64,000 nt of DNA, from positions 8,099,227-8,163,226 of the forward strand of contig NC_023758.2 of NCBI RefSeq assembly GCF_000499845.2. The letters are read 5' to 3'. The notes under the pieces were generated by a model. That model did not search any database, was not told the origin of the DNA, and saw only the letters and a list, made by a program, of their open reading frames with translations. Positions 1,142 through 64,000 of this stretch are shown here, in pieces (positions within the stretch are counted from its first letter, which is position 1; every line of letters begins with the position of its first letter). Made by a program: the position numbers and the translations under genes. The stretch comes from Phaseolus vulgaris (Eukaryota > Streptophyta > Magnoliopsida > Fabales > Fabaceae).

Positions 1142-1233
1142 GAATTTCAATCGGTTGTTTCTGCGAATCAACCGGTTGTTTTTCTGCGAATCAACCGGTT
1201 GTTTTTCTGCGAATCAACCGATTATTTTTCTGC
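1142..1233 (-). repeat. Four tandem 23-bp units carrying the CAAYCGRTTG palindrome
   Basis: Four units at 1142-1164, 1165-1187, 1188-1210 and 1211-1233 each hold one palindromic core (starts 1148, 1169, 1192, 1215). Copy 2 has only two units at the equivalent place (62245-62290), where they encode a repeated KQP motif between integrase and reverse transcriptase. Because 23 is not a multiple of three, the expansion also shifts the frame. The original pair keeps a 21-bp spacing and the added cores are 23 bp apart. Confidence 0.9.
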
Positions 1234-1956
1234 ACAGATTTCCAGCTTCTCCAAACTGATGCTCTGTTCATCTTCTTCAGCACTGGTCTTTGAGATTAGA
1301 TTGATTCTGCGATCTACCTCATCAAAGACAACGTGAACTGATTCTTCTACAGTCATCAATCTCTTGTTGTAGACTCTATATGCATGACTTGTGAGAGAAT
1401 ACCCTATGAAGACGCCAAGATTCGCTTTCTCATCAAACTTTCCCAAGTTTTCCTTTCCATTGTTGAGAACGAAACAACTGCAGCTAAAAACTCTGAGATG
1501 GTTGATGTTAGGCTTCCTTCCATTGAAGAGTTCATATGGAGTTTTCTTCAAAATGGGCCTAATAAGCACCTTATTCATCACATAACATGAGGTGCTCACT
1601 ACATCTGCCCAAAAGTACTTAGGAAGAGATGATTCACTAAGAATTGTCCTTGCTAGCTCTTCAAGAGACCTGTTCTTCCTCTCTACCACTCCATTATGCT
1701 GTGGTATTCTTGGAGCAGAGAAGTTGTGCAGAATTCCCATATTCTCACAGAATTTGTTGAACTTCTCATTTTGAAATTCTCCTCCATGATCACTTCTAAT
1801 AGAGCCTATGTTGCTGTTCTTTATATTTTGCAACCTTCTTGCTAGCTTCTTGAATGCAGAAAAGGCATCACTCTTTGATTCCAAGAAAAGAGTCCAAGTG
1901 TACCTAGAATAGTCATCAACAATAACAAGAGCATAATAATTTCCACCAAGACTCAT
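1222..1956 (-). pseudogene. copia integrase core, fragment
   Basis: An open stretch of 244 codons covers the rve integrase core, which joins retroelement cDNA to the host chromosome. The catalytic triad is visible: Asp in IVDDYSRYTW, Asp in RSDHGGEFQN and Glu in GVVERKNRSLEEL. It continues into the copia-specific C-terminal region (KKTPYELFNGRKPN, YRVYNKRLMTVEESVHVVFD). A frameshift just upstream (about 1957-1970) cuts it from the zinc-binding N-terminus, and the repeat array at 1142-1233 shifts the frame downstream. Part of a dead gag-pol. Confidence 0.88.
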
Positions 1957-2585
1957 AGTTTTGAGGGTCCAAAGAGATCCATGTGAAGAAGTTCAAGAGG
2001 TTTCAAAGATGAAACAACATTTTTAATTTTGAAGGAACTTTTCACTTATTTCCCTTTTTGGCATGCTTCACAAATGTGATCCCTCTCAAACTTGAGTTTT
2101 GGCAGCCCAAACACAAGATCCCTTGAAATTAGCTTGTTCAAGTGATTCATGTGAATATGAGCAATTCTTCTATGCCAAAGTCAAGATTTATCTTGCTTGG
2201 ATAGAAGACATCCAATTAAACATGGTGAAGAAATATCTAGAAGATACACATTATTAACTCTCTTACCTACCAACATTACCTCTTTGGTGTTGGGTAGACA
2301 GATTTCACATGTGTTTGACTTGAACATCACTTGATATCCCTTGTCACATAGTTGGCTAATGCTCAGCAGATTATGCTTTAGGCCTTCTACATAAAGCACA
2401 TCATGGATGACCAAGATGTCTTTGTCTCCTATGGATCCTCTCCCAAGAATCCTTCTTTTGTTGTTGTCCCCACAGGTGACATGACCCTCTTGCTTAAAGG
2501 AGATGCTCAGGAACTTTGGTTTGTCCCCTGTCATGTGCTTGGAGCATCCACTATCCAAGTACCACAGTTGTTTGGTCTCCTCCAA
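1957..2585 (-). pseudogene. copia aspartic protease and pre-integrase region, broken
   Basis: The open part (2181-2585) starts with QLWYLDSGCSKHMTGD, the active-site motif of copia aspartic protease, which cleaves the polyprotein. It continues through the gag-pre-integrase segment ([20 protein letters not shown]). At 2181-2183 a TGA stop replaces the Trp codon of the LWHR motif that is intact in copy 2. The next stretch to 1957 can still be recognised by similarity to copy 2 (plus-strand 61310-61530) before a frameshift at the start of the integrase core. Confidence 0.85.
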
Positions 2586-2605
2586 GATTCCCTACAAAAA
2601 AAATT

Positions 2606-3014
2606 TCAAGTACAAAGATTTGGCCCCCTTATGAATGTGGGTCCATTTGGTTTACACTCATCAATTAAAGCTTTATTACCCTTAGGAACCCACTTCATAA
2701 GACCTTTAGGAACAACATATTTTCTGATTTTACAGAACCTCATAGAATGGCCTCTTTTCATGCAATAGAAGCATGTAACAATCGGTTGTTTCGATGGTCC
2801 AATCGGTTGTTTTTCTGGCATTTTCGAAAATGATTTTCAAAATCTATCTTATTTGTATTGTGGATTAAAACCCAATCCAGCTTTTCCAAAAACACAGTTT
2901 TGAGATGCTAGAACACTCTCAATGTTGGATTGGCCTTTAGAAAGCTTATCCACAATTTTAACAAGATAGTGGACCTTCTTTTCAAGATTTTTGCAATTTT
3001 CACAAACTAGAGTA
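2606..3014 (-). pseudogene. copia gag C-terminal part with second zinc knuckle
   Basis: Two open stretches read ENCKNLEKKVHYLVKIVDKL and then a CX2CX4HX4C zinc knuckle (CFYCMKRGHSMRFC), an RNA-binding motif of Sirevirus gag. Just before the knuckle the 7-residue repeat KQPIGPS-KQPI is encoded by a pair of palindromes 21 bp apart (2779, 2800). The ORF ends in GPNLCT plus TGA, 18-21 bp before the protease frame, with a pyrimidine tract and TAG between. The same stop occurs in copy 2. The 2931-2950 segment preserves the uninterrupted target site of the solo LTR found in copy 2 at 59621. Confidence 0.85.
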
Positions 3015-3019
3015 TCACA

Positions 3020-3716: not shown

Positions 3717-3721
3717 TCACA

Positions 3722-4408
3722 CTTACAAGAGGAGTTTTTGTATATGATTTCAAGGTTTTCAAAATCTGTTTTTGAATTTTCTAATTCCTCTTCCAGTGTC
3801 TTTACTCTGTTTTCAAGCCAGCTATTCTTTTCCTTTAACCGATTGTTCAGGAGAGCTAATCGGTTGGCTTCTTCATGTGTTTCTTGAAAGGCTTGAAGCA
3901 ATTGACCATAATTTTCAGAGTTTTAGGAGTTTGATGAACTTACACTACTTTAGTCATCTTCCTTTCTGGCCATGAAGCAAAGGTTGAGGCTCTTCTTATT
4001 TTGCCTTCTTTTTCTTCTTGCTTGATTCTTTGACATTGCCTCCTTTGGTTCATTGTTTCCATGAGCAGCCTTGAGTGTGTCCCACATATCTTTAGCAGTT
4101 TTGCATTTTGATATCCTGAAAAACTCATTAGTATCTAGTGCAGAAGCTATTATGTTTTGAGCAGTACAATCAAGCTTGGCCATCTTACATTCATCACTGG
4201 TCCATTGAGACCAAGGTTTTGCAATGAAAGAACCATTCTTTTTAAACTTTGGAATGTAAGGACCATTCTCAATTGAATCCCAAAATCCTTGGTCAATAGA
4301 TTCCACAAAGATTTTCATTCGGGCTTTCCAGTATTTGTAATTCAATCCACAGAATAAAGGTGGTTTGTAGATTGAAGCACCTTCCTCAAAAGATAGTTTT
4401 CCAGCCAT
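3722..4408 (-). pseudogene. copia gag N-terminal part with large internal deletion
   Basis: The ORF 3950-4408 starts MAGKLSFEEGASIYKPPLF, the N-terminal DUF4219-like segment of Sirevirus gag, and runs to KTAKDMWDTLKAAH. There it jumps directly to RRKRRQNKKSLNLCFMARKE, which normally lies past the UBN2 core and the first zinc knuckle. Copy 4 (27674-28522) still has the UBN2 core, so about 200 codons are missing. Copy 2 has the same junction. After a frame break comes the coiled-coil stretch LLNNRLKEKNSWLENRVKTL (3722-3901). Capsid function should be lost. The solo LTR ends this segment. Confidence 0.86.
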
Positions 4409-4449
4409 AGAAAAAAATTATTTTGGATCAACTTGAATAATTTTCAAGA

Positions 4450-4468
4450 ACCAAGCTCTTGATTCCAA
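4450..4468 (-). other. Primer-binding site of Sirevirus copy 1
   Basis: Read on the minus strand, the sequence just inside the 5' LTR is TTGGAATCAAGAGCTTGG, a mutated form of the TGGTATCAGAGC site complementary to initiator tRNA-Met, preserved at 19840 in copy 4. It fixes the LTR edge at 4470. Confidence 0.8.
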
Positions 4469-4469
4469 T

Positions 4470-4998
4470 TGTTAGAATATATGGCTTTAAACTAGAGGGG
4501 GGGGTGAATTGTTTAAAGAGAGTTTTCGCAATCTTTTAAGCCTGGAATGAAATTACTTCGAGAATACCTTGATTTAGAAATCAGATTTTCAAAACACAAA
4601 GCTTAAAGCACTACACCAGCAAAACAATCGGTTGTTTCGCAAAAACAATCGATTGTTTATACTAGTAAACAAATATCAAAACTAAAATTAAAGAGTTAGG
4701 AATAGAGAAAATGTACACAAATGTTTATACTGGTTCACTCTAAACCCATAGCTACATCCAGTCTTCTTGGAAACCTCTGAGGAAATCCACTAAGCAATCA
4801 CACTTTGATCACTTACACCACAAACAAGAAAGTGACCTTGATCCCCTCAAGACACACACTTCTCTTGGCCAACACACCAACACTAAGATTGCTGATCTTG
4901 ATCCCCTCAAGAACACACAACAAATCTCAGCAAAACACAAACGAAACTTGTTCAACAAAGTACAAGGATTACACTTATTACAGAAGATAATATGAAAC
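4470..4998 (-). mobile_element. Truncated 5' LTR of Sirevirus copy 1
   Basis: It starts at the TGTTAGAAT terminus, next to the primer-binding site, with a G-run near 4497-4503. It aligns with the solo LTR at 18099-18640, including a palindrome pair at 4625 and 4646. About half of the roughly 1.1-kb LTR is present. The match stops around 4998, where gypsy A pol begins abruptly; no duplication is seen, so the joint is a deletion breakpoint. Confidence 0.88.
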
Positions 4999-6408: not shown

Positions 6409-6412
6409 CTTC

Positions 6413-7837: not shown

Positions 7838-8634
7838 TGATCCTGCCTGTTGACCAGAACGCTGGAAACTGCCTCGTCAAAGGATCGACGTGTGCACCGC
7901 TTCACACCTCCGTTCCTCTTCGAGATCCACCTCAAGAACCTGCAAAGAAACAGAGCGGCGCCGCTGCGGCCGATCGCACTCCAACGCCCAAGTCAGTGAC
8001 TGAATCACCAAATACTAAGAGAACAAGAACCGTGCAAATCCTCTCTCACAGTCAGCTTTATAACTCGCAAGCGTAAAGAGTATAATCTGAACGCGCGTAC
8101 CTTAGAAAGTTCGTTGAGAACTCTTATATACCTGGTTACTTTCTCTCTCCTGGCAGTTACAGACTTGGACACGTGGCTCGTATCCAACTGTACACGTGCC
8201 ATCATCTGGAGACTCCTTGACTTGGGCGCTGCTTCTACTCTGGTTTTACTAAGTTACCTATGCATGGTACTGCCCAGTACATAGCCAACTTGGGAGTGCG
8301 ATCTCTACTGGAACTGGCGAGTTAGGGAGCCTTCATACACCTTCCCTGTGGTCTCGTCGGCCGCCTTCATAATCTGCTTCTCCTTCATCTTCGGCGATGT
8401 GCTTTCTCTGGCGATCTCCAATCGCTTGGTCGCCTGAATTACATCTGGCGACTTCATCTTTAACCCGGTGATCGCCTATCTTGGTATGCTGGAGATCGGA
8501 ACACGCCAACTTAATAACTGGCGACTTCACGAGCCCCCCCGACTTACTTCCCTTTTGCTAACCTGGCGCCTTGCCAACACACCTATACTGTAGCGGGATG
8601 CCACGTCATCACTTCCGACTACCAGGGCGGTACA
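7838..8634 (-). mobile_element. 5' LTR of gypsy A, 797 bp
   Basis: Runs from TGATCCTGCC to GGCGGTACA in plus coordinates, ending in the TG/CA pair. It matches the solo LTR at 59621-60532 and, less closely, the gypsy C LTRs. The boundary on the left is fixed by the primer-binding site and on the right by the start of CRM-like leader sequence. Confidence 0.9.
8123..8198 (-). promoter_or_regulatory. LTR promoter: TATA box with two upstream G-boxes
   Basis: Read on the minus strand, TATATAAG lies at about 8123-8131. Two CACGTG G-boxes at 8193-8198 and 8170-8175, 23 bp apart, lie upstream of it. The same arrangement occurs in the related LTRs. CACGTG is a bZIP/bHLH binding site in plants; actual use is inferred. 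Confidence 0.6.
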
Positions 8635-17554: not shown

Positions 17555-19837
17555 TGTTGAATCAAGTGTGTTCAAGCTTTGAAGAATCCAAATCCTTTGA
17601 GTGTGATGGAAGGCTGGATGTGCTTGTTGTTGCTGAGGTGTTTTAGAATAGGATCTGGGGTAGATTCTCTGTGTAAATCCACTCTTGATTGAATCCAAAG
17701 CTTAAGTATTCTCAAACCTTTTGAATTGAAAGTATTTTTGAAACTAAGTGAAAAACAACCTGTTGTTTTGTCGAAACAACCGATTGTTTTATACTTAGGT
17801 GTTTTGAGAAAGGTTGAAAACTATTTTTGGTGGTTGACTTATTGTCAAACCAAAACAACCGATTGATTCGAGCATTCAACCTATTGTTTGTTTTGAAACC
17901 ATAACAAAAAACTGTTTTGTGCTTTGACTGAGTTTTAAATGATTTTATAACTGAATGCACTCCAGTTTTAAATGCTTTGACCAGTCTTTGAAAGCTATAA
18001 AGAGTTTGTTCAGATTATGTAACAAACTAGAACTGAGATTTAATCATAGAAAAACATATATGAGTTTTTTACTAATTTTGCTTTTCAAGAGTTAAATATG
18101 TTAGAATGGATGGCTTTAAAATAGAGGGGGGGGGGTGAATTGTTTAAAGAGGGTTTTCGCAATATTTTAAAACAAGAATGAAATTATCTCAAGAAACAAT
18201 TGATAAGAAATTCAGTTTGCCAAAACAGCAATAAAAAACAGCAGCACCAGAAAAATAATCGGTTGTTTCACATAAACAATCGGTTGTTTATATTAGCAAA
18301 CAACAAACAAACTGAATTTAAAGAGTTAGGGATAGAGAGATTTCACACAGATCTTTATACTGGTTCACTCCAAACCCAGAGCTACATCTAGTCTTCTCAG
18401 AAACCCTGAGGAAATCCACTAAGCAATCACAACTTGATCACTTACACCACAACGAAGAAAGTGACCTTGAACACCTCAAGACACACACTCTTCTTGCCCA
18501 ACACACCAACACTAAGATTGATGATCTTGATCCCCTCAAGAACACACAACCAATCTCAGCAAACACAGAAACGAAAACTTGTTTCACAAAGTACACGGAT
18601 TACACTTGTTACAGAAGATAATCTGAAATCAATACAAGCAGAATCCTACTCCACAAACTTTGATCAATCACAAATTTAAGCAATCTCAGCTCTTTGAAAA
18701 ACTCAAAAACTCTTAGTAAAAAAACTTGTAAAAGATTAATTCTCAAATCTGTTTTTCTGAATATATTCAAAGATGTAGTTTGTTATCAAATCTTAACAAA
18801 CTCTTAAATTGCATTAAAAGATTGGTCAAAGCATTTAATGACTGGAGCGTAAGCAGTTAAATCATTTAAAGCTCAGTCAAAGATAAAATAGTTTTTCTGT
18901 TATGGTCCCAAAACAAACAATCGGTTGTTTCCTCGAATCAATCGGTTGTTTTGGTTTTAACAGTTCAACCATTTGAAAAATAGTTTTCAATCTTTTCTCA
19001 AAACATCTAAGTATAAACAATCGGTTGTTTCGACAAAACAATCAGTTGTTTTTAACTTAGTTTTGAAAAACATTTTACTTTCAAAAAGATTGAGAATGCC
19101 TATGCTTTAGATTCGATCAACGGGTGGATTACAACACTCAAACTACCCCAGAACTAGACTAAACCAGCACAGCAACAGCAAGCACAACCAAGGCTTCAAC
19201 ATCCTTCAATGGGTATGGATTCTTCAAAGCTTGAACACCACTTGGTTCAACAAAATATTGCTTAGAGATTGCTTTGATCAAGATAGAGTGGAATAGGATT
19301 TTCATTTGTATTGATTTCAGATTATTCTGTAACAAGTGTAATCCTTTTGTACTTTGTGTAAACTCTAGTGTGTGAGGTCGAGAAGTGTTGTGTCCTCCTG
19401 AGGTTGTCAAGATCAACATTCTTGGTGGTGTATGTGCTTAGCCAAAGGAAATGTGTGTCTTGAGGGGATCAAGGTCACTTCTTTGGTGGTGTGTGAGAGT
19501 AATCTAGGTTTGGTTACTTAGTGGATTCCCCAGTGGTTTCTGGGAAGACTGGAAGTAGCTCCTGGTTTAAGAGTGAACCAATATAAATTGTGTGTGCAAT
19601 CTCTCTATCCCTTAAACTCTTTAATTTCAATTTATATTTGTTAACTGGTATAAACAACCGATTGTTTTGTGAAACAACCGATTGTTTTTCTGGTGCTGTG
19701 CTAAATTGCTTTGTGTTTTTGGCAAACTGAATTCTAAATCAATTTTTCTACAAGGAATTTCATTCTAGACTAAAAAGTTTGCGAAAATCCTCTTTAAACC
19801 ATTCACCCCCTCTAGTTTAAAGCCATACATTCTAACA
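17555..19837 (+). mobile_element. 5' LTR of Sirevirus copy 4, split by a solo LTR
   Basis: Left part 17555-18098 begins TGTTGAATC; right part 19253-19837 ends TCTAACA, next to the primer-binding site. Without the insert the LTR is about 1.12 kb, matching the LTR at 45088-46206 (1119 bp). It holds palindrome pairs at 17756/17777, 17856/17877 and 19655/19675, the last spaced 20 bp. Confidence 0.9.
18099..19252 (-). mobile_element. Sirevirus solo LTR inside a sister LTR, TSD AAATA
   Basis: A 1154-bp LTR of the copy 1/2/4 family in the opposite orientation to its host LTR. AAATA flanks it at 18094-18098 and 19253-19257. It has no internal region. Palindrome pairs lie at 18256/18277, 18918/18939 and 19018/19039, each 21 bp apart. 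Host and insert form inverted LTR arms, which can be mistaken for a palindromic duplication. Confidence 0.93.
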
Positions 19838-19877
19838 ATTGGTATCAGAGCTTGGTTCTTGAAATTTATTCAAGTGT
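19838..19877 (+). other. Primer-binding site and leader start of Sirevirus copy 4
   Basis: TGGTATCAGAGC at 19840-19851 is the canonical site complementary to plant initiator tRNA-Met. The leader is cut by the CRM-like element at 19877, after the first copy of AGTGT, and resumes at 27654, 20 bp before gag. Confidence 0.92.
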
Positions 19878-20862
19878 TGATGTGATTCCAATAGCCACAT
19901 AGAACAAGATTCTTGACACTTTGAGGAATCACCTTGAGCTGGAAAATATAGAGGCACTTTCTTAGAAGTTGGATCATGGTTCTAAAATCAAGAACTCACC
20001 AATAACAAGTACCAAATCCCAAACTCATTTGGATGAACCAAATATTGTCAAATTGAATCAACAAAGGAGAAGGAAAAGAAGAAACCGAACAGAATTGAAT
20101 TAAAAACAAAAGTACCGAACAGAATTAAGAAGCAAACAGAAAATAGGTGCTGGAAAATTAAAGGAACCGAAACAAAAACAACTCAAAACTCAAAGCTACA
20201 TGAACAAATTGAAGAAGAAGAAAGGAAGGAGAAGAGAATGCTCATGAAGATGGAGGAATGGTTGGATGATCACGCCACTAGAAGAATGGATGCTCCTAGA
20301 TGAGTGTGCAAGCCGCCACTTGAGGAAACCATGGTCCTTCAAGATAAGACTAGAGTAGAAGCTCAAAAGCTCTCCAAATGCTCACTCCAATTTTGAGTAT
20401 AGTTTCTTTAGATAAAATCAAATCTGAAATTTACAAGGAAGGCACCTCTATTTATAGCCTAAGGTGCTGAAAAAGAAAGCTAAAACAATTCAAAATTCCC
20501 TCCTAATTCAAACTAGAACCGGCGCCTATTTGCAAAGCAAGGAAGGTGTGATCCTTTCCTTCACTTTGGCACCCCCTATTCTACTTCTACACCTATCTAC
20601 TAATACACCCCCTAAAGCTCCTAACTAAAGCCTAAAAGATGCTATAACAAAAGAGGTTTCTAAGGTTTCCCTCTAAGCACCTTCAACTAAAGACACTACA
20701 AAAAGAGAAAATAAATGTCCTCTAGCTCCCAAGGCTTTGAACATGCTTCTTGTAATCCTTTGAGGTGGACTTTGACCTCCATGGGCGTCCTCCATTTGTG
20801 CCTCCACCTCTTCTTGAGCTTGATGAGTGGCCTCCATGTTCTCTTGGGCTTGATCTCCATCA
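19878..20862 (-). mobile_element. 3' LTR of the CRM-like element, 985 bp
   Basis: TGATGTGATT to CTCCATCA. Bases 20673-20862 also encode about the last 62 residues of the polyprotein. A minus-strand TATAAATAG box lies near 20450-20460. Just internal to it, GGGGAGTA on the minus strand (20863-20872) is the polypurine tract. Confidence 0.93.
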
Positions 20863-23800
20863 TACTCCCCGAGTTGGAGAGAATTCGACCACGAATTCTG
20901 GAGACCTACAGAAAAAGGAGTTAGATCGCTGATATTAAAAGTATGACTACCTAAGAATGTATCAGGCATATCTAACTCATAAGCATTGTCATTAATCCTC
21001 TTGAGGACTTGGAAAGGTCCATCCCCTCGAGGCATTAGTTTGGACTTCCTTTGAGTAGGAAAACGATCCTTCCTCAAGTGAAGCCAAACCCAATCGCCCT
21101 CATCAAACAACAATGCTTTTCTCCTCTTATTGGCAAGTTCAGCATACTTGCCAACCTTCTTCTCAATTCTCTTCTTGATGTCTTTATGCAAAGTTTTCAC
21201 AAAAGAAGCCTTTTCATCCCCATCTTTGCACAAGACATCGTCAAGAAGGGGAATAGGAAGAAGATCAAGAGGTGTTAGGGGATTAAACCCATAGACCACC
21301 TCAAAAGGAGAATGGGAGGTGGTAGAATTTACTACTCGGTTATATGCAAACTCAACATGGGGTAGTAAATTCTCCCACACTCTAGGATTCCCCGAAATAA
21401 AGCATCTCAATAGTTGTCCCAAAGTTCTATTCACTACCTCGGTTTGACCATCGGTTTGTGGGTGGCAAGTGGTAGAAAATAAAAGCTTAGTTCCAAGCTT
21501 GCCCCACAAGGTCTTCCAAAAGTGACTCAAGAACTTAGGATCTCTATCGGACACTATAGACCTAGGAATCCCATGCAAGCGAACCACTTCTTGGAAGAAG
21601 AGGTTTGCAATGTGGCATGCATCATCCACTTTGTGGCAAGGAATAAAGTGAGCCATCTTTGAAAAACGATCCACTACCACAAAAATGGAGTCCTTTCCCT
21701 TTGATGTCTTGGGTAAGCCTAAGATGAAATCCATAGATATATCTACCCAAGGCATTGAAGGGATAGGAAGAGGAGTATAAAGACCATGGGGATGCATTTT
21801 AGATTTAGCTTTGCGGCAAGCTATGCATTTATCACACAAACTATGAACATGTTTATGCATATGAGGCCAAAAGAAATGTTCATGCAACACATCCAAAGTT
21901 TTAGCAACCCCAAAATGTCCCATTAAGCCCCCCTCATGAGCTTCTCTAACAAGAGATAATCTAATAGAGCATTGGGGAACACAAAGACGTTTTCCTTTAA
22001 AAAGAAAGCCATCTTGAATAAAAAAATCTTTGTGTCCTCCCTTAAGACACTCTTGATAGAGGAGAGAAAAATCAAGGTCATCATGATAAAGTTCCTTAAT
22101 TTGATCAAAACCAAGATATTGAGAGGTTAAAAGATTTAGCAAGGTGTATCTTCTAGAAAGAGCATCCGCCACAATATTTATTTTGCCTTGCTTGTGTTTG
22201 ATCACATAAGGAAATTGCTCAATGAATTCCACCCACTTAGCATGCCTCTTGTTAAGTTTGTTTTGGCTTTTCAAATATTTAAGAGATTCATGACCACTAT
22301 GTATCACAAACTCTTTGGGAAAAAGATAGTGTTGCCAAGTAAACAAAGCCCTAACAAGTGCATATAATTCCTTATCATAGGTGGAATAGTTGAGATGACT
22401 TCCCTTCAATTTCTCACTAAAATAGGCTATGGGGTGGCCCTCTTGAAGGAGAACAGCCCCAATACCTATGCTTGAAGCATCACACTCAATCTCAAATGTC
22501 TTAGTGAAATTAGGAAGGGCCAAGATGGGAGCATTAGTCAATTTTTCTTTCAAAGTATCAAAAGCATTTTGTTGTGCTTCTCCCCAATGAAAGACCACAT
22601 CCTTTTTCACTATGTCATTGAGTGGTGCGGCAATGGTACCAAAGTTTGGGACAAATCTTCTATAGAAAGAAGCAAGCCCATGAAAACTTCGGACCTCAAT
22701 CAAAGATTTCGGTGTAGGCCAATTTTGAATGGCCACCACCTTGGTTTTGTCCACATGGACCCCTTTACAACTCACAACAAACCCTAGGAATTCTATATGA
22801 TCAAGAGCAAACATACATTTAGCAAGGTTAGCATACAAATGTTCCTTCCTAAGGGTTTCCAAAACTTGCCTAACATGCAACCTATGGTCATTCAAAGATA
22901 AGCTATAAATGAGAATGTCATCAAAGTAAACCACAACAAACTTACCAATGAAAGGTCTAAGAACATGATGCATGAGGCGCATGAAGGTACTTGGTGCATT
23001 AGTTAAACCAAAAGGCATAACTAACCACTCATATAAACCAAAGTTGGTCTTAAAAGCCGTCTTCCATTCATCACCCGGTTTGATACGGATTTGATTGTAG
23101 CCGCTTTTAAGATCAATCTTTGAAAAGATTTTTGAACCATGTAATTCATCCAACAAATCATCTAGTCTAGGTATGGGATGCCTATACTTAATGGTTATGT
23201 TATTTATGGCCCTACAATCCGAACACATTCGCCATGTGCCATCCTTTTTTGGCACTAAGATGATAGGCATAGCACAAGGACTCATGCTATCTTGCACCCA
23301 CCCTTTTTCAATCAAAGCCTCAACTTGTTGGCGAATTTCCTTGGTTTCACTTGGATTGGTCCTATATGCGGGACGATTTGGTAAAGAAGAGCCCGGTATC
23401 AAATCAATTTGGTGCTCAATCCCTCTCAAAGGTGGAAGTCCATTTGGAGGATCTTGAAACACATCTTTGAACTCTTCTACCAAATTTTCCAAGCAATGAG
23501 GACTATCAACAAGTGTTTCTATGCTAAGAGTTCTAGGGATGGCTAAAAAAAGAGGATGATGAGCCACTATTTCCCTTTCAATGTCACGCCTAGACACAAG
23601 GAGTGTAGGCTTAGAACTCTTATCTTTTTTATCTTTTTTATCTTTTTCACTCTCCCTCTTTTTCTTCATGATAACTTGGTCCTCATGGACTTCTCTTGGA
23701 GAGAGAGATTTTAAAGTAACCTTGTGACCATGGAATTCAAAAGATAATTTGTTGGTAAAGCCATCATGTAAAACTTTTCTATCAAATTGCCAAGGCCTTC

Positions 23801-44286: not shown

Positions 44287-45087
44287 ACATTTAACTGGTT
44301 ATTCAGATTCTGACTTTGCAGGTTGCAAGCTAGATAGAAAGAGCACTAGTGGCACTTGTCACCTTCTTGGCTCAAGCCTAATCTCATGGCATAGCAAGAA
44401 GCAAGCATGTGTTGCTCTCTCTATTGCTGAGGCTGAATCTATAGCTGCTGGTAGCTGTTGTGCACAGATTCTCAAGCAACAACTTGCAGATTTTGGTTTA
44501 CATATCAGCAAAGTTCCCTTGATGTGTGATAACACAAGTGCAATCAATCTTACCAAAAATCATATTCAACACTCAAGGACCAAACATATTGAAATAAGAC
44601 ATCATTTCATCAGAGATCATGTGCAAAATCGGAACTGTGAAGTGAAGTTAGTGGAGACCAAACTGCAGCTAGCTGACATCTTCACAAAACCATTACCAAA
44701 AAAGAGGTTTTTCTTCTTAAGAAATGAGTTAGGTATTCTTGATCTTAATAATTTCTCTTAAATCTGTTTGTGGTACATGTTAAAGTCTATTTGTGAAGAC
44801 AAATAGGGGGAGTATTATTGGTTCTTGTATATCTTTGTCTGATATTGCACAAAATGTTAAAAACTCTGATATAAAAGTGTTTTCTGCTGCTGCTGATAGA
44901 AACAATCGATTGTTTCGTGTAAACAACCGATTGTTTATCTTGTTTAATTCTTTAAATGAGTTAAAATCTAACTAGCTGCTATAAGAAGCTTTGGATAGTA
45001 TAAATGTTGTTTCTGCAGGAACTGCTTCAGATTTAATCAGGTACAACACAAGCACCAGGGATTTGTCTTCATCAAATAGGGGAAGAT
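44287..45087 (+). mobile_element. 3' end of a further Sirevirus (RNase H to polypurine tract)
   Basis: Encodes the end of copia RNase H: SDSDFAGCKLDRKSTSG, GSCCAQILKQQLADFGLHIS, MCDNTSAINLTKNHIQHSRT, HIEIRHHFIRDHVQNRNCEV and LADIFTKPLPKKR, stopping at 44761. Two polypurine tracts follow: AAATAGGGGGAG near 44805-44816 and AAATAGGGGAAGAT near 45074-45087, the second abutting the LTR. A palindrome pair lies at 44903 and 44924. This is the part of RNase H that copy 2 lacks. Confidence 0.86.
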
Positions 45088-46206
45088 TGTTGAACCTTGT
45101 GATGTTCAATGTTTTGAAGAATCCAAATCCTTTGAAGGATGTTGAAGCCTCTGTTTTGCTTGATGTTGTTGTTCTGGTTTAAGCTTTGTTCTGGGGTAGT
45201 TCATATGTTGTAATCCACCCTTTGATTAAATCTCAAGCAATTAGCATCTCAATCTTTATGAAAGTAAAATGTTTTTCAAACTAAGTTGAAACAAACGATT
45301 GTTTATACTTAGGTGTTTTGAGAAAGATTGAAAACTGTTTTTGAATGGTTGAAACTGTTAAGTACCAAAACAACCGATTGATTCGAGCAAACAACCGATT
45401 GTTTGTTTTGGAACCATAACAGAAAAACTGTTTTGTGTTTGACTAAGCTTTAAATGATTTAACTGAATACGCTCCAGTCATTAAATGCTTTGACCAATCT
45501 TTTAAAGCAATTTAAGAGTTTGTTAAGATTTGATAACAAACTATATCTTTGTATAAATTCAGAAAAACAGATTTGAGAATTAAAAAAAAGAATCTTTTGA
45601 CAAAGTTTTTCTAAAGAGTTTTTCAAAGTGCTGAGATTGCTTAAGAGTTTGTGATTGATCAAGGTGCTGGAATAGGATTCTACTTGTATTGATTTCAGAT
45701 ATTCATCTGTGACAAGTGTAATCTTTGTAATCTGTTGATCAAATCGTTTCTGTGTTTGCTGAGATTGGCTGTGTGTTCTTGAGGTGTTCAAGATCAACAA
45801 TCTTAGTGTTGGCCAAGGAGAGTGTGTTTCTTGAGGTGTTCAAGGTCATTCTCTTGGTTGTTGTGTAAGTGATCAAGGTGTGATTACTTAGTGGATTTCC
45901 TCAGGGTTCTGAGAAGACTGGATGTAGCTCTGGATTTGGAGTGAACCAGTATAAACAACTGTGTACAATTTCTCTATCCCTATCTCTTTAAATTCAGTTT
46001 TCTCATTTTGAAACTGGTATAAACAACCGATTGTTTCGCTAAAACAACCGATTGTTTTTCCAGCTTTGTGCTTTTGCTGTTTGTTTTGAAAAACTGAATC
46101 CTTAATCAAGGTTCTTTTGAAGAATTTTCATTCTAAGGTTAAAAGTTTACTAAAATCTTTCTTAAACAATTCACCCCCCTCTCGTTTAAGGCCATATATT
46201 CTAACA
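45088..46206 (+). mobile_element. Sirevirus LTR shared by two tandem internal regions
   Basis: 1119 bp from TGTTGAACC to TCTAACA. On its left it has a polypurine tract, as a 3' LTR should; on its right a primer-binding site and gag leader, as a 5' LTR should. Palindrome pairs lie at 45371/45392 and 46024/46045, with a lone half near 45291. Confidence 0.9.
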
Positions 46207-46624: not shown

Positions 46625-47565
46625 TGATCCTGCCGGTTGACTCGAGTGCAAGAGTCTTGCCACGTCAAAGGTATCTTCTCTCGATCAGCTTCGCACCACG
46701 TTAGCTTCCGTCCTTCACACCTCGATTCTCCGCAAGAACCTGAAAAAGGCAGAGTGGCGCCGCTGCGGCCGATCGCGCTCCGACGCTCAAGTCAGTGACG
46801 GAATCACCAAATACTAAGAGAGAAAAGCTAAAACTCAAGAAACCGTGCAAATGCTCTCTCAGCGTACTCCAGTGTTCTCAAAAGCGTAAAGAAGTGTTCT
46901 AAACGTGCGCGTACCTCAGAAGTTCGTTAGAGTTCCTTATATACCTGAGCACTTTCTCTCTCCTGACGGTTACACCTCTGGACATGTGGCTCGCGTCCAG
47001 CTGTACACGTGTCACCATCTGGAGCCACCGTCTACTTGAGCGTCACCTCTACTCTTCAGGCTATTTGACTAAGTTACCCATGCCAGGAGTAACTACAGCT
47101 TCCTTGGAGCGCGACCCCTTAAGCGGCGAGTACGGGGTGTCACCACGTACACCTTCTCTGTGGTCTCGCCTGCTGCTATCACGATCTGTTTTACTTGCAC
47201 ATCGTGCATGTTCTGGTAAACTGTTCCCTTGCCTTAACCTCTGGGCAGGGAATGATCATCTGATAACCTCGTCCTTCGTACTCGTACCCCTTGAAGGCCC
47301 TAAACAAGCCTTCCTGATCCTTCGGCGATGTCCCCCTTTCGGCGGTCTCTGACCACTTGGTCGCCTAAGCTCACATGCGGCGACTATGACACAAGCCTGG
47401 TGACCGCCGACTAGATATGCTAGAGATCGAAGAACGCCAACTTAACAATTGGCGACTACACAGACTTCCCGATGTACTTCCCTTCTGTCAGCCAGGTGTT
47501 CCGCTCAACACGCCTATATTATCGTTTGCTGCCACGTCATCACTTTCGACCACCTGGTCGGTACA
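46625..47565 (-). mobile_element. 3' LTR of gypsy C, 941 bp
   Basis: TGATCCTGCC to CGGTACA, followed by the polypurine tract at 47566-47581. It has a minus-strand TATATAAG box near 46937. One of the paired G-boxes is mutated (CATGTG) and the other is intact. Confidence 0.93.
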
Positions 47566-48163
47566 CAAGCCCCCCAGTCTTAAGCTGAGACTTGACCAGC
47601 GAAAAGACTAAGAGGTCACATCATCGTCGATCTACGTGGCGCTGGTACGGATTTCCGTACATCCGTACCCTCTGCTTTTCTGACGCTCCACCAACCTCTT
47701 TTTCCATCACTCGACACGTGGCGTCATCAACGGTCATCTTCAGCTGTCGTTTGCGCTTCCGAAAACGTTCGATAAACCCTTAAACCCTTTGCGCTTCCAC
47801 TGTTCCATCATCTTTCTTCACTCTCAAGCGTTCTAAGTATTTTCTCTGCGAACCACGAAGCTTCTCGTCACTCTCAATCTCCAACTTTCTTCAACGCTCA
47901 TCCGATCACAAAAAGGTAACCCTTTTACTCCTTCTATGGATATTTGCTGCATTTTAATCGGTTTGCATCATCCATTATCTGTCTGAAGCATACGTTGTGG
48001 GCTGTTTTTTCCTTTTCTCCTTTTCTCGTAACCTAAGGCTTCGTTCTTCGTAACGTTTATCCCAGCGAACCCTTTTTTGCTCGCCCTATCTTCTTCGTCC
48101 TCAATCGAGTCGTTCTCTGTTGTCCTCATTTCATCCCTTTCTCTTTCCTTTGCAGTTCCTGCG
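47566..48163 (+). promoter_or_regulatory. Polypurine tract of gypsy C and upstream region of the antisense gene
   Basis: The minus-strand polypurine tract AAGACTGGGGGGCTTG at 47566-47581 is identical to that of gypsy B. A plus-strand CACGTGGC lies at 47715-47722, about 450 bp before the antisense ATG. A pyrimidine tract and TTTGCAG at 48149-48155, 9 bp before the ATG, look like a splice acceptor, so a 5' UTR intron is possible. Confidence 0.5.
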
Positions 48164-58278: not shown

Positions 58279-59219
58279 TGATCCTGCCGGTTAACTCGAG
58301 TGCAAGAGTCTTGCCACGTCAAAGGTATCTTCTCTCGATCAGCTTCGCACCACGTTAGCTTCCGTCCTTCACACCTCGATTCTCCGGAAGAACCTGAAAA
58401 AGACAGAGTGGCGCCGCTGCGGCCGATCGCGCTCCGACGCTCAAGTCAGTGACGGAATCACCAAATACTAAGAGAGAAAAGCTAAAACTCAAGGAACCGT
58501 GCAAATGCTCTCTCAGCGTACTCCAGTGTTCTCAAAAGCGTAAAGAAGTGTTCTAAACGCGCGCGTACCTCAGAAGTTCGTTAGAGTTCGTTATATACTT
58601 GAGCACTTTCTCTCTCCTGACAGTTACACCTCTGGACACGTGGCTCGCATCCAGCTGTACACGTGTCACCATCTGGAGCCACCTTCTACTTGAGCGTCAC
58701 CTCTACTCTTCAGGCTATTTGACTAAGTTACCCATGCCAGGAGTAACTACAGCTTCCTTGGAGCGCGACCCCTTAAGCGGCGAGTACGGGGTGTCACCAC
58801 GTACACCTTCTCTGTGGTCTCACCTGCTGCTATCCCGATCTGCTTTACTTGCACATCGTGCATGTTCTGGTAAACTGTTCCCTTGCCTCAACCTCTGGCC
58901 AGGGAATGATCATCTGATAACCTCCTCCTTCGTACTCGTACCCCTTGAAGGCCCTAAACAAGCCTTCCGGATCCTTCGGCGATGTCCCCCTTTCGGCAGT
59001 CTCTAACCACTTGGTCGCCTAAGCTCACATGCGGCGACTATGACACAAGCCTGGTGACCGCTGGCTAGATATGCTAGAGATCGGAGAACGCCAACTTAAC
59101 AATTGGCGACTACACAGACTTCCCGATGTACTTCCCTTCTGTCAGCCAGGTGTTCCGCTCAACACGCCTATATTATCGTTTGCTACCACGTCATCACTTC
59201 CGAATACTTGGTCGGTACA
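58279..59219 (-). mobile_element. 5' LTR of gypsy C, 941 bp
   Basis: Same length as its partner. A minus-strand TATATAAC-type box lies near 58590, with CACGTG boxes near 58638 and 58660. It ends CGGTACA next to the second GAAGC. Plus-strand frames within it, such as 58599-59006, have no recognisable product. Confidence 0.93.
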
Positions 59220-59620
59220 GAAGCAATGACAAAAAGTCAAGGAAGAAGAAAGAGAAGACAAAATCAAAAAAGCCTTAATCTTTGCTTCATGGCCAGAAAA
59301 GAGGATGACTCAAGTAGTGTAAGTTCATCAAACTCTTCAAACTCTAAAAATTATGGCCAATTGCTTCAAGCCTTTCAAGAAACGCATGAAGAAGCTAACC
59401 GATTGGCTCTCTTGAACAATCGGTTAAAAGAAAAGAACAACTGGCTTGAAAACAGAGTAAAGGCACTGGAAGAGGATTTAGAACATTCAAAAACAGATTT
59501 TGAAAATCTGGAAATCATTTACAAAAATTCCTCTTGCAAGTGTGATACTCTAGTTTGTGAAAATTGCGAAAATCTTGAAAAGAAGGTCCATTATCTTGTT
59601 AAAACAGTGGATAAGCTTTC
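59220..59620 (+). pseudogene. Sirevirus copy 2 gag, middle part
   Basis: Continues gag after gypsy C: RRKRRQNQKSLNLCFMARKE, then a Ser/Asn-rich stretch, then the coiled coil LLNNRLKEKNNWLENRVKAL and CKCDTLVCENCENLEKK, to KTVDKLS. The repeat NRLALLN-NRL is encoded by a palindrome pair at 59396/59417, in a different reading frame from the other coding pairs. The gypsy solo LTR follows, after CTTTC. Confidence 0.87.
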
Positions 59621-60532
59621 TGATCCTGCCTGTTGACCAGAACGCTGGAGCTTTGCTTCGTTAAACTTGGATCGACGTGTGCGCCGCGTCAACCTCCGTC
59701 CTTCACCGCGATTCACCTCAAGAACCTGCAAAAGAACAGAACGGCGCCGCTGCGGCCGATCACGCTCCGACGCTCAAGTCAGCGACTGAACCACCAATCA
59801 CTAAGAGTAACACTCAAGAACTCGCAAGGAACCGTGAACCAGTTCTCTCTCAGTATACTCAAGAACTCGCAAGCGTAAAGAAGACAATCTGAACGTGCGT
59901 ACCTCAGAAGTTCGTTGGAAACTCTTATATACCTGGATACTTTCTCTCTCCTGGAAGTTACACATCTGGACACGTGGCTCGCATCCAGCTGTACACGTGG
60001 CTCGCATCCAGCTGTACACGTGCCTTCATCTGGAGCATCCTTGACTTGGGCGCTACTTCTGACTCTTCTTTGGCTAAGTTACTTATGCATGATACTACTC
60101 AGTGCATAGTTGCCTTGGAGCGTGATCTCTTCTGGATGGCGAGTTCGGGTGCCTTCGTACACACCTTCCCTGTGGTCTCGCCGGCCGCCTTCATGATCTG
60201 CCCTACCTGCGTCACCGTGCATGTTCAAGTGCGCTATCTCCCGGGCTCGTTCTCTGGCCAGCTGGGAAATGACCATCTGCCTTCATCTTCGGCGATGTCC
60301 TTGTTTCGGCGATCTCTAACCACTAGGTCGCCTGGATTCACATCTGGCGACTTCATCCTCAACTTGGTGACCGCCGGTCCTGGTGTGCTGGAGATCGGAG
60401 CACGCCAACTTAATAACTGGCGACTACACGAGCCCCCCGACTTCCTTCCCTTCTGCCAGCCAGGCGTCCCCTCAACACGCCTATACAATAGCTTGATGCC
60501 ACGTCATCACTTCCGACTACCAGGGCGGTACA
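59621..60532 (-). mobile_element. gypsy A-type solo LTR, 912 bp, TSD CTTTC
   Basis: TGATCCTGCC to CGGTACA with CTTTC at 59616-59620 and 60533-60537. Copy 1 keeps the uninterrupted site at 2931-2950. It is closer to the gypsy A LTR than to gypsy C. It carries a tandem duplication of a 23-bp G-box unit, giving CACGTG at 59971, 59994 and 60017, upstream of the minus-strand TATATAAG at 59925-59932. Confidence 0.95.
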
Positions 60533-60871
60533 CTTTCTAAAGGCCAATCAAACTTTGAGAGTGTGCTAGCATCTCAAAATTGTGTTTTTGGAAAATCTGG
60601 ATTGGGTTTTAATCCACAAAACAAACAAGATAAATTTTCAAAATCATTTTCGAAAATGCCAGAAAAACAATCGATTGGATCATCGAAACAATCGATTGTT
60701 ACATGCTTCTATTGCATGAAAAGAGGCCATTCTGTGCGATTCTGTAAAATCAGAAAACATACTGTTCCTAAAGGGCTTATGAAGTGGATTCCCAAGGGAA
60801 ATAAAGCTTTTATTGATGAGTATAAACCAGATGGACCCACATTCATAAGGGGACCAAACCTTTGTACTTGA
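60533..60871 (+). pseudogene. Sirevirus copy 2 gag, C-terminal part with zinc knuckle
   Basis: Resumes with KGQSNFESVLASQ-type text and contains KQSIGSS-KQSI, encoded by palindromes at 60668 and 60689, then the zinc knuckle CFYCMKRGHSVRFC. It stops at GPNLCT plus TGA, exactly as in copy 1, 21 bp before the pol frame and in the same frame. Confidence 0.87.
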
Positions 60872-63665
60872 AAATCTCTTTTGTAGGAAATCTTGGAGGA
60901 GAGTAAGCAACTTTGGTACTTGGACAGTGGATGCTCCAAGCATTTGACAGGGGACAAATCAAAGTTCCTGAGAATATCCTTCAAGCAGGAGGGTCATGTC
61001 ACCTATGGAGATAACAACAAAGGAAGAATTCTTGGAAGAGGATCCATAGGAGATGAAGACAACTTGGTAATCCATGATGTGCTCTTTGTTGAAGGCCTAA
61101 AGCATAATCTGCTGAGCATTAGCCAACTTTGTGACAAGGGATATCAAGTGATGTTCAAGACAAACACATGTGAAATCTGTCTACCCAACACCAAAGAGGT
61201 AATGTTGGTAGGTACGAGAGTTAATAATGTGTATCTTCTAGATATATCTTCACCATGTACAATTGGATGTCTTCTATCCAAGCAAGATGAATCTTGGCTT
61301 TGGCATAGAATAATTGCTCATATTCACATGAATCATTTAAACAAGCTAATATCAAAAGATCTTGTGATTGGGCTGCCAAAACTCAAGTTTGAGACGGATC
61401 ACATTTGTGAAGCATGCCAAAAAGGGAAACAAGTGAAAAGTTCTTTTAAAACCAAAAATGTTGTCTCTTCTTTGAGACCTCTTGAACTCCTTCACATGGA
61501 TCTCTTTGGACCCTCTAGAACTATGAGTCTTGGTGGAAATTATTATGCTCTTGTTATTGTTGATGATTTCTCTAGGTACACTTGGACCTTGTTCTTGGAA
61601 TCAAAGAGTGATGCCTTTGTTGCATTCAAAAAGCTAGCAAGAAGACTATAAAACACAAAGAACAGCAACATAGGTTCTATAAGGAGTGACCATGGAGGAG
61701 AATTTCAGAATGAGAAGTTTGTCAAGTTCTGTGAGAAGTTGGGGATTCTACACAATTTCTCTGCTCCAAGAACACCACAGCAAAATGGAGTTGTAGAGAG
61801 GAAGAACAGGTCTTTTGAAGAGCTTGCAAGAACAATGCTTAGTGAATCATCACTTCCTAAGTATTTTTGGGCAGATGCAGTGAGTACCTCTTGTTATGTG
61901 ATGAATAGGGTACTTATAAGGCCCATTTTGAAGAAAACTCCATATGAACTTTTCAATGGAAGGAAGCCCAACATCAGTCACCTCAAAGTCTTTGGCTGTA
62001 GTTGTTTTGTTCTCAACAATGGAAAGGAAAGCTTGGGAAAGTTTGATGAAAAAGCTGACCTTGGTATTTTCATTGGTTATTCACTCACAAGCCATGCATA
62101 TAGAGTCTACAACAAAAGGTTGATGATTGTAGAAGAATCAGTTCACATTGTCTTTGATGAGGTAGATCGTAGAATCAGTCAGATCCCAAAGATCAGGGCT
62201 GAGGAAGATGAACAGAGCATGAGTTTGGAGAAGCTGGAAATTTGTGCAGAAAAACAACCGGTTGATTCGCAGAAACAACCGATTGAAATTCTGCAACAGA
62301 GTGAGCTGCCCAAAGAGTGGAGGATTCCTAGAGATCTGTCAGTGGATAACATCATAGGGCAGATAAAGGAAGGTGTCTCCACACGTAGCTCCATCTCAAA
62401 CTACTACAGGCACACAACTTTTGTATCTCAAACTGAACCAAAGTCAATTGAGGAAGCTCTCAAGGATGAGAAGTGGGTTGAAGCTATGCATGAAGAGCTA
62501 AATCAGTTTGAAAGGAATGGGGTATGGTTTCTTGTCCCTAAAACTAATGAAATGAATATTATTGGTTCGAAATGGGTTTTCAGGAACAAGCTAGATGAGG
62601 ATGGAGTGATCACTAGGAACAAAGCAAGGCTAGTTGCTAAAGGCTACAATCAAGAAGAGGGCATAGATTATGGTGAAACCTTTGCTCCTGTGGCTAGATT
62701 GGAGGCTGTGAGGCTGCTGCTGGCCTTTGCTTGTATGAGTGGTTTTAAACTCTTCCAAATGGATGTAAAGAGTGCCTTCTTGAATGGCTACATCAATGAG
62801 GAAGTCTTTATAGATCAACCACCGGGTTTTGAAGATCACAAGTATCCTAACCATGTCTTCAAGTTGAAGAAAGCTTTGTATGGACTGAAATAAGCTCCAA
62901 GGCAGTGGTATGAGAGGCTTAGCAACTTTCTGCTATCTCATGGTTATGAAAGAGGAATGGTAGACAAGACTCTCTTCATCAAGAAGTCAAATGCAGAAAT
63001 AATTCTTGTGCAAATCTATCTTGATGACATCATCTTTGGTGCTACACAAGATAGATTGTGTGAAGAATTTGTGCCTGCAATGAAAGGTGAGTTTGAAATG
63101 TCTATGATGGGAGAACTATCTTTCTTTCTTGGATTGCAGGTTAAACAAACAAAGGATGGGATTTTCTTAAGTCAATCAAAGTATTGCAAGGAGATTCTCA
63201 AGAAGTTTGAAATGGAGAATTGCAAAGAAGCAAGCACTCCAATGCCATCAAGCTGCTACATGGATGCGGATGCTGCTGGAAAGAGTATAGATCAAACAAA
63301 ATACAGAGGTTTGATTGGATCTTTGCTTTATCTAACAGCTAGTAGGCCGTACATCATGTTTGCGATGTGTCTATGTGCAAGATATCAAGCAAATCCTAAA
63401 GAGTCACACTTCAAAGCTGCAAAAAGAATTCTGAAATATCTCAAAGGAATATCATCTATAGGACTATGGTATCCTTCTCACTCTTCAATACATTTAATTG
63501 GTTCTTCAGATTCTGACTTTGCAGGTTGCATGCTAGATAGAAAGAGAACTAGTGGCACTTGTCACCTTCTTGGCTCAAGCCTAATCTCATGGCATAGCAA
63601 GAAGCAAGCATGTGTTGCTCTCTCTACTGTTGAGGCTGAATATATAGCTGCTGGTAGGGGGAGAT
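60872..63665 (+). pseudogene. Sirevirus copy 2 pol: two Gln-to-stop changes and truncated RNase H
   Basis: One frame from about 60893. Protease YLDSGCSKHLTGD; pre-integrase WLWHRIIAHIHMNHLNKL; integrase IVDDFSRYTW, SDHGGEFQN and VVERKNRS; reverse transcriptase VFRNKLDEDGVITRNKARL and DVKSAFLNGYINEEVFI. TAA stops at 61649-61651 and 62891-62893 replace CAA codons that are intact in copy 1. The catalytic box reads YLDD (IYLDDIIFG) instead of YVDD. RNase H stops after VEAEYIAAG, fused directly to the polypurine tract and LTR by a deletion of about 1.4 kb relative to 44440-45080 minus its noncoding tail. Dead, but only lightly damaged. Confidence 0.88.
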
Positions 63666-64000
63666 TGTTGAACCTTGTGATGTTCAATGTTTTGAAGAAT
63701 CCAAATCCTTTGAAGGATGTTGAAGCCTCTGCTTTGCTTGATGTTGTTGTGCTGGTTTAAGCTTTGTTCTGGGGTAGTTTATATGTTGTAATCCACCCTT
63801 TGATTAAATCTCAAGCAATTAGCATCTCAATCTTTGTGAAAGTAAAATGTTTTTCAAACTAAGTTGAAACAACCGATTGTTTTGTCGACACAACCGATTG
63901 TTTATACTTAGGTGTTTTGAGAAAGATTGAAAACTGTTTTTGAATGGTTGAAACTGTTAAGTACCAAAACAACCGATTGATTCGAGGAAACAACCGATTG
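63666..64000 (+). mobile_element. 3' LTR of Sirevirus copy 2, cut by window end
   Basis: Begins TGTTGAACC after a GGGGGAGAT tract and aligns with 45088 onward. Palindrome pairs lie at 63870/63891 and 63970/63991, both 21 bp apart. The lone half at 45291 in the other LTR corresponds to the first of these pairs. Confidence 0.92.

What the first reader, a model, noticed from the sequence alone, without database searches (positions are those of the whole stretch)
1148..64000. Pairs of a short palindrome spaced exactly 21 bp in Sirevirus LTRs and coding regions
The core CAAYCGRTTG (perfect forms AAACAACCGGTTGTTT and AAACAATCGATTGTTT) occurs as pairs. Starts: 1148/1169, 2779/2800, 3837/3858 (AAYCG part), 4625/4646, 17756/17777, 17856/17877, 18256/18277, 18918/18939, 19018/19039, 19655/19675, 44903/44924, 45371/45392, 46024/46045, 59397/59418 (AAYCG part), 60668/60689, 62255/62276, 63870/63891, 63970/63991. 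Seventeen of 18 pairs are 21 bp apart, two helical turns; one is 20. Sireviruses are reported to have palindromic motifs in LTRs; what stands out is the fixed spacing and the reuse inside genes. A DNA- or RNA-binding dimer on one face of the helix is a possible explanation.
Basis: partly seen in the sequence, partly recalled or inferred. Interest (0 to 1): 0.9.

Follow-up and report, generated by a model that had tools for sequence, protein, structure and literature searches.

The report
Paired 21-bp boxes across Sirevirus retrotransposons
Related plant retrotransposons carry the same short DNA box in pairs 21 bases apart, in their control regions and also inside their genes, where each unit is read as seven amino acids; the pairs are likely docking sites for a plant DNA-binding protein, and they are a variant of a motif already described in this group of elements.

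Summary
All 18 listed pairs exist: 17 at 21 bp, one at 20. Chance predicts about 0.2 exact boxes; 29 are present, and simulated windows gave no pairs. By position the pairs collapse to seven places: two in U3, one behind a TATAAA, one in the 3' linker, three in genes (gag coiled coil, before the gag zinc knuckle, integrase-RT linker). Six share one module; the coiled-coil site looks ordinary.

The box is a directional 13-mer, AAACAAYCGRTTG, mostly CCGA on the sense strand, with a third CpG 9 bp from one box. In coding it reads K-Q-P/S-I/V seven residues apart, kept in 89 of 109 listed gag relatives. Copy number at the integrase-RT place runs from 1 to 4, so tandem duplication occurs.

The core is in print for the Sirevirus Tnd-1 (ACAATCGATTGT); I saw no fixed pairing and no gag or pol copies in what I read. 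LTR boxes are better conserved than their surroundings (borderline), but the spacing is not shown to be protected. The host-genome search did not complete. Best reading: a paired cis-regulatory motif whose binding protein is unknown.

The parts
17753..17789 (+). site L1 (U3), box pair, 21 bp, LTR-P
19015..19051 (-). site L1 (U3), box pair, 21 bp, LTR-Q
63867..63903 (+). site L1 (U3), box pair, 21 bp, LTR-S
45289..45304 (+). site L1 in LTR-R: single one-mismatch box; the neighbouring unit is missing here but present in LTR-S
17853..17889 (+). site L2 (U3), box pair, 21 bp, LTR-P
18915..18951 (-). site L2 (U3), box pair, 21 bp, LTR-Q
45368..45404 (+). site L2 (U3), box pair, 21 bp, LTR-R
63967..64000 (+). 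site L2 (U3), box pair, 21 bp, LTR-S, cut by the window end
19652..19687 (+). site L3 (directly behind a TATAAA), box pair, 20 bp, LTR-P
18253..18289 (-). site L3, box pair, 21 bp, LTR-Q
46021..46057 (+). site L3, box pair, 21 bp, LTR-R
4622..4658 (-). site L3, box pair, 21 bp, LTR-T
44900..44936 (+). site U1, box pair, 21 bp, between two polypurine-like runs (44803, 45076) in the 3' linker; seen once
2776..2812 (-). site G2, box pair in gag just before the CCHC knuckle (KQPIGPSKQPIVTC), element A
60665..60701 (+). site G2, box pair in gag (KQSIGSSKQSIVTC), element E
1145..1227 (-). site I1, integrase-RT linker of element A: four boxes, steps 21, 23, 23 (frame disturbed)
62252..62288 (+). site I1, integrase-RT linker of element E: box pair (KQPVDSQKQPIEIL)
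3833..3869 (-). site G1, gag coiled coil (NRLALLNNRL), element A; box-like, no third CpG
59393..59429 (+). site G1, gag coiled coil, element E; box-like, no third CpG
45088..46206 (+). LTR-R of a Sirevirus (ends approximate); primer-site match at 46209, poly-C run at 46174
18099..19253 (-). LTR-Q, lying inside LTR-P (17555-18098 and 19254-19875)

Best explanation
These pairs are a variant of the Sirevirus repeated motif: two copies of a directional 13-bp box (AAACAAYCGRTTG) set 21 bp apart form one module that recurs at six places across related elements, where it likely serves as a docking site for a host DNA-binding protein that would control transcription from the LTR. Shown: the module, its spacing, its third CpG, its recurrence at L1, L2, L3, U1, G2 and I1 (G1 is probably only coiled-coil sequence), and its reading as K-Q-P/S-I/V every seven residues in gag and in the integrase-RT linker. 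Inferred: that DNA binding is the function; that two bound proteins sit on the same side of the helix, two turns apart; and that ready-made modules were copied between places, because L2 and I1 share 30 of 34 bases including the spacer. Inferred too: the coding copies are tolerated because 21 bp is seven codons and both places are probably flexible linkers; they may or may not still bind.
For: In this window the Sirevirus boxes come in pairs or more, except the LTR-R remnant, while unpaired near-matches elsewhere are at chance level. Both TCGA 16-mers in the window contain ACAATCGATTGT, the repeated motif printed for the Sirevirus Tnd-1. L1 and L2 begin about 200 to 330 bp into the LTR, where published repeated motifs start (200-400 bp). 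Box columns are 92.5% and 95% identical against 82% and 81% elsewhere; circular-shift fractions 0.061 and 0.056, combined p 0.023, though both alignments use mostly the same LTR copies. CpGs are kept in 20 of 23 box cells against 24 of 52 elsewhere, Fisher p 0.0009, cells related by descent. 14 of 16 modules have a third CpG exactly 9 bp from one box's CpG; the other two have TG there. In gag relatives, 89 of 109 anchored proteins (120 listed of 397 hits) keep two Q-P/S/L-hydrophobic triplets seven residues apart. In the alignment of those 120 the P position changes almost only to L or S (66 of 73 non-P residues), as C-to-T change in a CCG would give.
Against: No protein is known here to bind the box; no binding or expression data were available. 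LTR spacing is not more protected from gaps than the rest of the LTR: 3 events against 3.9 expected. The conservation test is borderline and rests on four related LTRs per alignment; R and S are 97.8% identical. Published motifs lie shortly before the TATA box; L1 and L2 lie more than 500 bp before the TATAAA pair, and L3 lies behind it. Common descent of one pair would also give equal spacing. The third-CpG pattern was noticed after looking. The box residues in gag are no more conserved than the nearby zinc knuckle and the stretch before it, so coding copies could be kept for the protein alone.
Confidence: 0.5

Rival explanations
1. The pairs are a minisatellite-like repeat: a 21-bp unit duplicates by slippage or unequal exchange, and the pairs are inherited without function.
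For: Copy number at the integrase-RT place varies. Of 37 relatives read by eye, 27 have two boxes seven residues apart (substitutions allowed), 2 have one, 1 has two five residues apart, 1 three, 1 four, 2 are frameshifted and 3 are cut or not readable there. Element A has four boxes. LTR-R has lost one unit. Gap events in LTR modules are at the background rate.
Against: Two boxes are the rule at six unrelated places. The two boxes of a pair are hardly more alike than boxes of different places (14.33 against 13.96 of 16; 15 modules), so most pairs were not freshly duplicated in place. Box columns and their CpGs are better kept than surroundings, borderline.
Confidence: 0.25
2. The pair works as RNA or single-stranded DNA: each box can pair with the other to form a hairpin, feeding small RNAs or packaging.
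For: Two near-palindromes in tandem are also an inverted repeat. Antisense strands of the six modules folded have z -4.3 to -7.1, and four of the six sense strands also fold better than shuffles (z -3.2 to -5.3). Palindrome clusters in maize Sirevirus LTRs attract small RNAs (reported in passages of PMC10760457).
Against: The sense strand is the weaker one in 16 of 17 modules, since a CCGA/CCGA pair gives two C-A mismatches. Pairing between the boxes of one pair is no better than between boxes of different places (12.93 against 12.80 of 16; 15 modules).
Confidence: 0.12
3. Selection acts on the protein: KQPI heptads in gag and in the integrase-RT linker are the functional unit, and LTR copies are secondary.
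For: In 120 gag relatives K and Q of both boxes and I of the first are 94 to 100% conserved; 89 of 109 keep the seven-residue spacing.
Against: 11 of the 18 pairs are in LTRs and one in the 3' linker, outside coding. The P position drifts: 32 of 37 non-P residues in box 1 and 34 of 36 in box 2 are L or S; the second box's I/V position is V in 89 and I in 26 of 120.
Confidence: 0.1

Closest known systems
Sirevirus repeated motif (RM) of Tnd-1 and other elements, Bousios et al. 2010 (PMC2829016; section 9 and passages read)
   Same: Short symmetric box repeated in a Sirevirus LTR, starting 200-400 bp from its beginning; Tnd-1's ACAATCGATTGT is contained in the TCGA form found here. [quoted passage not shown]
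   Different: Here the boxes come in pairs 21 bp apart with a third CpG, up to six boxes per LTR rather than eight, one pair behind the TATAAA motifs, and copies in gag and in the integrase-RT linker; the passages I read give no fixed spacing and no gag or pol copies
Palindrome clusters of maize Sirevirus LTRs, Bousios et al. 2016 (not held; known from passages of PMC10760457)
   Same: Palindromic motifs in the LTR control region
   Different: Those are discussed as secondary structure drawing small RNAs; here the sense strand is the weaker folder
13-bp element of the tobacco retrotransposon Tto1 (title seen in the reference list of PMC8656106; sequence and MYB link only recalled)
   Same: A short cis-element in a plant copia LTR promoter
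   Different: Named there as responsive to wounding and other cues; nothing of the kind was tested here, and the sequences were not compared
Palindromic coding elements of microbes (Rickettsia elements, PARCELs; PMC2996958, passages read)
   Same: A palindromic DNA unit read in frame inside genes; Rickettsia elements sit in non-structured segments
   Different: Mostly bacterial and other microbes; PARCEL repeats are 75 nucleotides and amphipathic; no LTR copies

Membership tests
Sirevirus (Ty1/copia) | CA/ATTGG followed by TATCAGAGC at the 5' LTR junction | tested here: met
   exact at 19840; variants with a substitution and an extra A at 46209 and 4455
Sirevirus (Ty1/copia) | poly-C integrase signal near the LTR end | tested here: met
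   4 of the 5 matches to my C-run pattern lie near LTR ends: 19806, 46174, 18123 (-), 4494 (-); the fifth is at 49415
Sirevirus (Ty1/copia) | multiple identical polypurine-tract octamers before the 3' LTR | tested here: inconclusive
   AGGGGGAG at 44803 and 63655, AGGGGAAG at 45076; the octamer's letters were not in the passages read
Sirevirus (Ty1/copia) | copia-type gag and integrase | tested here: met
   PF14223, PF00665 and PF25597 in element A pieces
Sirevirus repeated motif (RM) | symmetric box matching a published RM | tested here: met
   AAACAATCGATTGTTT at 4643 and 44900 contains Tnd-1's ACAATCGATTGT
Sirevirus repeated motif (RM) | CGG-CCG core (absent in Tnd-1 too) | tested here: not met
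   cores are YCGR between CAA and TTG
Sirevirus repeated motif (RM) | at least eight copies per element | tested here: inconclusive
   up to six boxes per LTR; no uninterrupted element in the window was counted
Sirevirus repeated motif (RM) | found in LTR, linker and start of env only | tested here: not met
   pairs also in gag and in the integrase-RT linker
Sirevirus repeated motif (RM) | borders a CpG island shortly before the TATA box | not tested
   no CpG-island call was made; L1 and L2 lie over 500 bp before the TATAAA pair
RNA hairpin element | arms of one pair match better than arms of different places | tested here: not met
   12.93 against 12.80 pairs, 15 modules
R2R3-MYB site | CNGTTR core in every box (recalled consensus) | tested here: not met
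   4 of 32 boxes are TCGA forms without it
Tandem minisatellite | variable copy number at one place | tested here: met
   1 to 4 boxes at I1 in relatives; LTR places have two, bar one single

The most novel reading that the evidence does not exclude
The module is a double compromise: a paired DNA platform, two helical turns long, that binds a host regulator in either half-site form (CCG or TCG), and whose sense strand has settled on the one form, CCGA, that breaks the hairpin the two boxes would otherwise make in the element's own RNA, so that the element keeps its enhancer but hides it from RNA silencing; the same module is carried in gag and pol as a seven-residue repeat, placing binding sites along the whole element.
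Probability: 0.15. Interest if true: 0.75.

Novelty: new variant of a known kind. Interest (0 to 1): 0.5.

Why it matters
The 2010 paper that described repeated boxes in Sirevirus LTRs left their function to experiment. A fixed pair with a measurable spacing is a better bait for a binding protein than a single box, and one cis-module that is also written into gag and pol gives a natural test of whether DNA-level control can shape a retrotransposon's proteins. The sense-strand bias against hairpins gives a direct test of the proposed tug of war between promoter palindromes and small-RNA silencing (PMC10760457, passages read).

Tried and rejected
MYB dimer as the general answer: rejected as a universal explanation, because 4 of 32 boxes and Tnd-1 lack the recalled core. 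RNA hairpin as the selected form: not supported by arm matching or by sense-strand energies. Codon-usage test: the first version was circular, since boxes were defined by their DNA. The protein-defined version gives 6 of 6 units with CAA, NCG and ATT/GTT codons, against 8 of 152 CCN/TCN codons ending in CG outside boxes, but the six units come from two close relatives. Spacing protection in LTRs: not found.

DNA relatives: viral contigs gave 2 pattern matches, L001 and L002, looked at only around the match, and no tblastn relative; genome contigs gave one distant fragment, L003, 38% identical. Host: the only named protein among the 37 found with the linker is from Phaseolus vulgaris (86% over the 57 residues searched), so a bean relative is likely, not proven. 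Papers: Bousios 2016 is not held. The ten paper searches gave listings; of the listed papers I read section 9 and passages of PMC2829016, and passages only of PMC2996958, PMC10760457, PMC4093653, PMC3601003 and PMC8656106. In these I saw no report of a 21-bp pairing or of gag or pol copies. Supplementary files were not read.


Full report
What is there. The core CAAYCGRTTG occurs 29 times exactly in 64 kb, where about 0.2 are expected. Two further boxes follow the first pair at 23-bp steps. One lone box lies in LTR-R. The other 7 unpaired one-mismatch sites are about as many as chance gives (5.9 of such sites expected) and, by comparison, lie in none of the Sirevirus stretches that I aligned.

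Whose they are. Self-comparison and Pfam show several nested copia-type pieces. LTR-P (17555-18098 and 19254-19875, +) is interrupted by LTR-Q (18099-19253, -). LTR-R is at about 45088-46206 (+), the start of LTR-S at about 63665 (+), and part of LTR-T at 4431-4997 (-). Gag and pol pieces of element A lie between 32 and 4408 (-) and of element E between 59220 and 63657 (+). Primer site, poly-C signal and copia domains fit Sirevirus as described in PMC2829016. Among the 37 proteins found with the integrase-RT linker, the only named one is from Phaseolus vulgaris, so the host is probably a bean relative; this is inferred.

Seven places, not eighteen. Aligned by position the pairs fall into L1 and L2 (U3, boxes beginning about 200 to 330 bp into the LTR), L3 (directly behind a TATAAA that lies 67 or 68 bp after another in all four LTRs), U1 (3' linker between two polypurine-like runs, seen once), G1 (gag coiled coil), G2 (gag, just before the CCHC knuckle) and I1 (integrase-RT linker). 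No single element in the window shows all of them. G1 lacks the AAA flank and the third CpG and reads NRLALLNNRL, an ordinary-looking coiled-coil heptad; I leave it out of the module.

Anatomy of the module. In the 16 modules of the other six places, the left flank AAA is kept in 30 of 32 boxes and the right flank TTT in 19 of 31 readable ones. The box is therefore directional, AAACAAYCGRTTG, rather than a full palindrome; AAACAACCGGTTGTTT does not occur. On the element's sense strand the centre is CCGA in 25 of the 36 boxes of the 18 pairs and TCGG in 2, both in G1. A third CpG lies exactly 9 bp after the first box's CpG position or 9 bp before the second's in 14 of 16 modules; the other two carry TG there, as CpG decay would leave. 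I noticed this after looking, so its weight is limited. L2 (LTR-R) and I1 (element E) are alike in 30 of 34 bases, spacer included, which suggests that whole modules were copied from place to place. The two boxes of one pair are hardly more alike (14.33 of 16) than boxes of different places (13.96), over 15 modules, so most pairs are not fresh local duplications.

Coding copies. In frame, CAA-YCG-RTT reads Q-P/S-I/V, and 21 bp is seven residues. Of the 120 integrase-RT relatives listed (of 7,988 hits), 46 have such a triplet in the segment examined and 21 have two of them seven residues apart; the rest do not. Of 37 relatives found with the linker alone, read by eye, 27 have two boxes seven apart, 2 one, 1 three, 1 four, 1 two boxes five apart, 2 a frameshift, and 3 are cut or not readable there. 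For gag, 120 of 397 hits were listed; 109 could be anchored on the knuckle and 89 of these keep the seven-residue pair, L being allowed for P or S. In the alignment of all 120, K and Q of both boxes and I of the first are 94 to 100% conserved next to a few variable positions, but much of the surrounding gag is as conserved. The P position is P, L or S in 114 of 119 and 118 of 120, which is what C-to-T change in CCG would give. The DNA of these relatives was not available, so whether their boxes are intact as DNA is open.

Is it conserved beyond neutral expectation? In the two LTR alignments box columns average 92.5% and 95% identity against 82% and 81% elsewhere; 6.1% and 5.6% of circular shifts do as well, combined p 0.023, although the two alignments share most LTR copies. 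CpGs are retained in 20 of 23 box cells against 24 of 52 elsewhere (Fisher p 0.0009, cells related by descent). Against the reading: gap events touching modules are at background rate, 3 against 3.9 expected, so the spacing itself is not shown to be protected. R and S are 97.8% identical, so the effective number of LTR lineages is about four.

RNA structure. Tandem near-palindromes can pair with each other. Antisense strands of six modules fold well (z -4.3 to -7.1); sense strands range from z -0.5 to -5.3, four of the six below -3. Over 17 modules the sense strand is the weaker in 16, the exception being G2 in element E; by place it is weaker in all seven. With CCGG centres the same modules would fold at -11.5 to -22.3 kcal/mol instead of the -3.7 to -15.9 seen. 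Arms of one pair do not match each other better than arms of different places. So a selected hairpin is unlikely; avoidance of a sense hairpin is possible, but descent from one CCGA ancestor explains the bias equally well.

How it most likely works (inferred). A host protein would recognise the 13-mer; two copies two helical turns apart would let two molecules bind side by side in the LTR. The protein is unknown; MYB fits only part of the boxes. Coding copies probably arose by copying of the module during reverse transcription and were tolerated because 21 bp keeps the frame. The 23-bp steps in element A and the frameshifted repeats in P0249 and P0250 show what happens when it is not kept.

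What is known. PMC2829016 (section 9 and passages read) lists ACAATCGATTGT as the repeated motif of Tnd-1, eight copies in the LTR, and reports such motifs in LTRs, in the linker and, for two other elements, at the beginning of env, which is a precedent for coding copies. It places them shortly before the TATA box, which does not fit L1 and L2 (over 500 bp before) or L3 (behind). I saw no fixed spacing and no gag or pol copies there or in the ten search listings. The box is therefore known; the pairing rule and the gag and pol copies look new, at the level of a variant.

Noticed in passing
19878-27648: Ty3/gypsy element with 99.9% identical LTRs and a 1,545-codon open frame, directly behind LTR-P and in front of a Sirevirus gag: a young nested insertion.
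   Followed up: partly
46625-47570, 58279-59224, 59620-60533, 7838-8634: A repeat of about 0.95 kb (97% between the first two copies, about 69-85% in matches among the others) interrupts or abuts gag of Sirevirus copies.
   Followed up: no
2606 (-) and 60871 (+): Both gag pieces end in a stop right after ...GPTFIRGPNLCT, at the gag-pol border, in two separate elements; could be a real gag end or a readthrough point.
   Followed up: no
LTR-P, Q, R, T: Two TATAAA motifs 67 or 68 bp apart in all four LTRs, the second abutting the first box of L3.
   Followed up: partly
1145-1227: Integrase-RT linker of element A carries four boxes with 23-bp steps that break the frame; relatives P0249 and P0250 (the latter with 68 member sequences) show a similar frameshifted repeat.
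   Followed up: partly
33279-33645: Local tandem repetition with offsets of about 75, 154 and 231 bp.
   Followed up: no
L001, about 500-540: A viral contig with three AACCGGTT cores in a row, two of them 21 bp apart; no Sirevirus relative was found in that collection.
   Followed up: no
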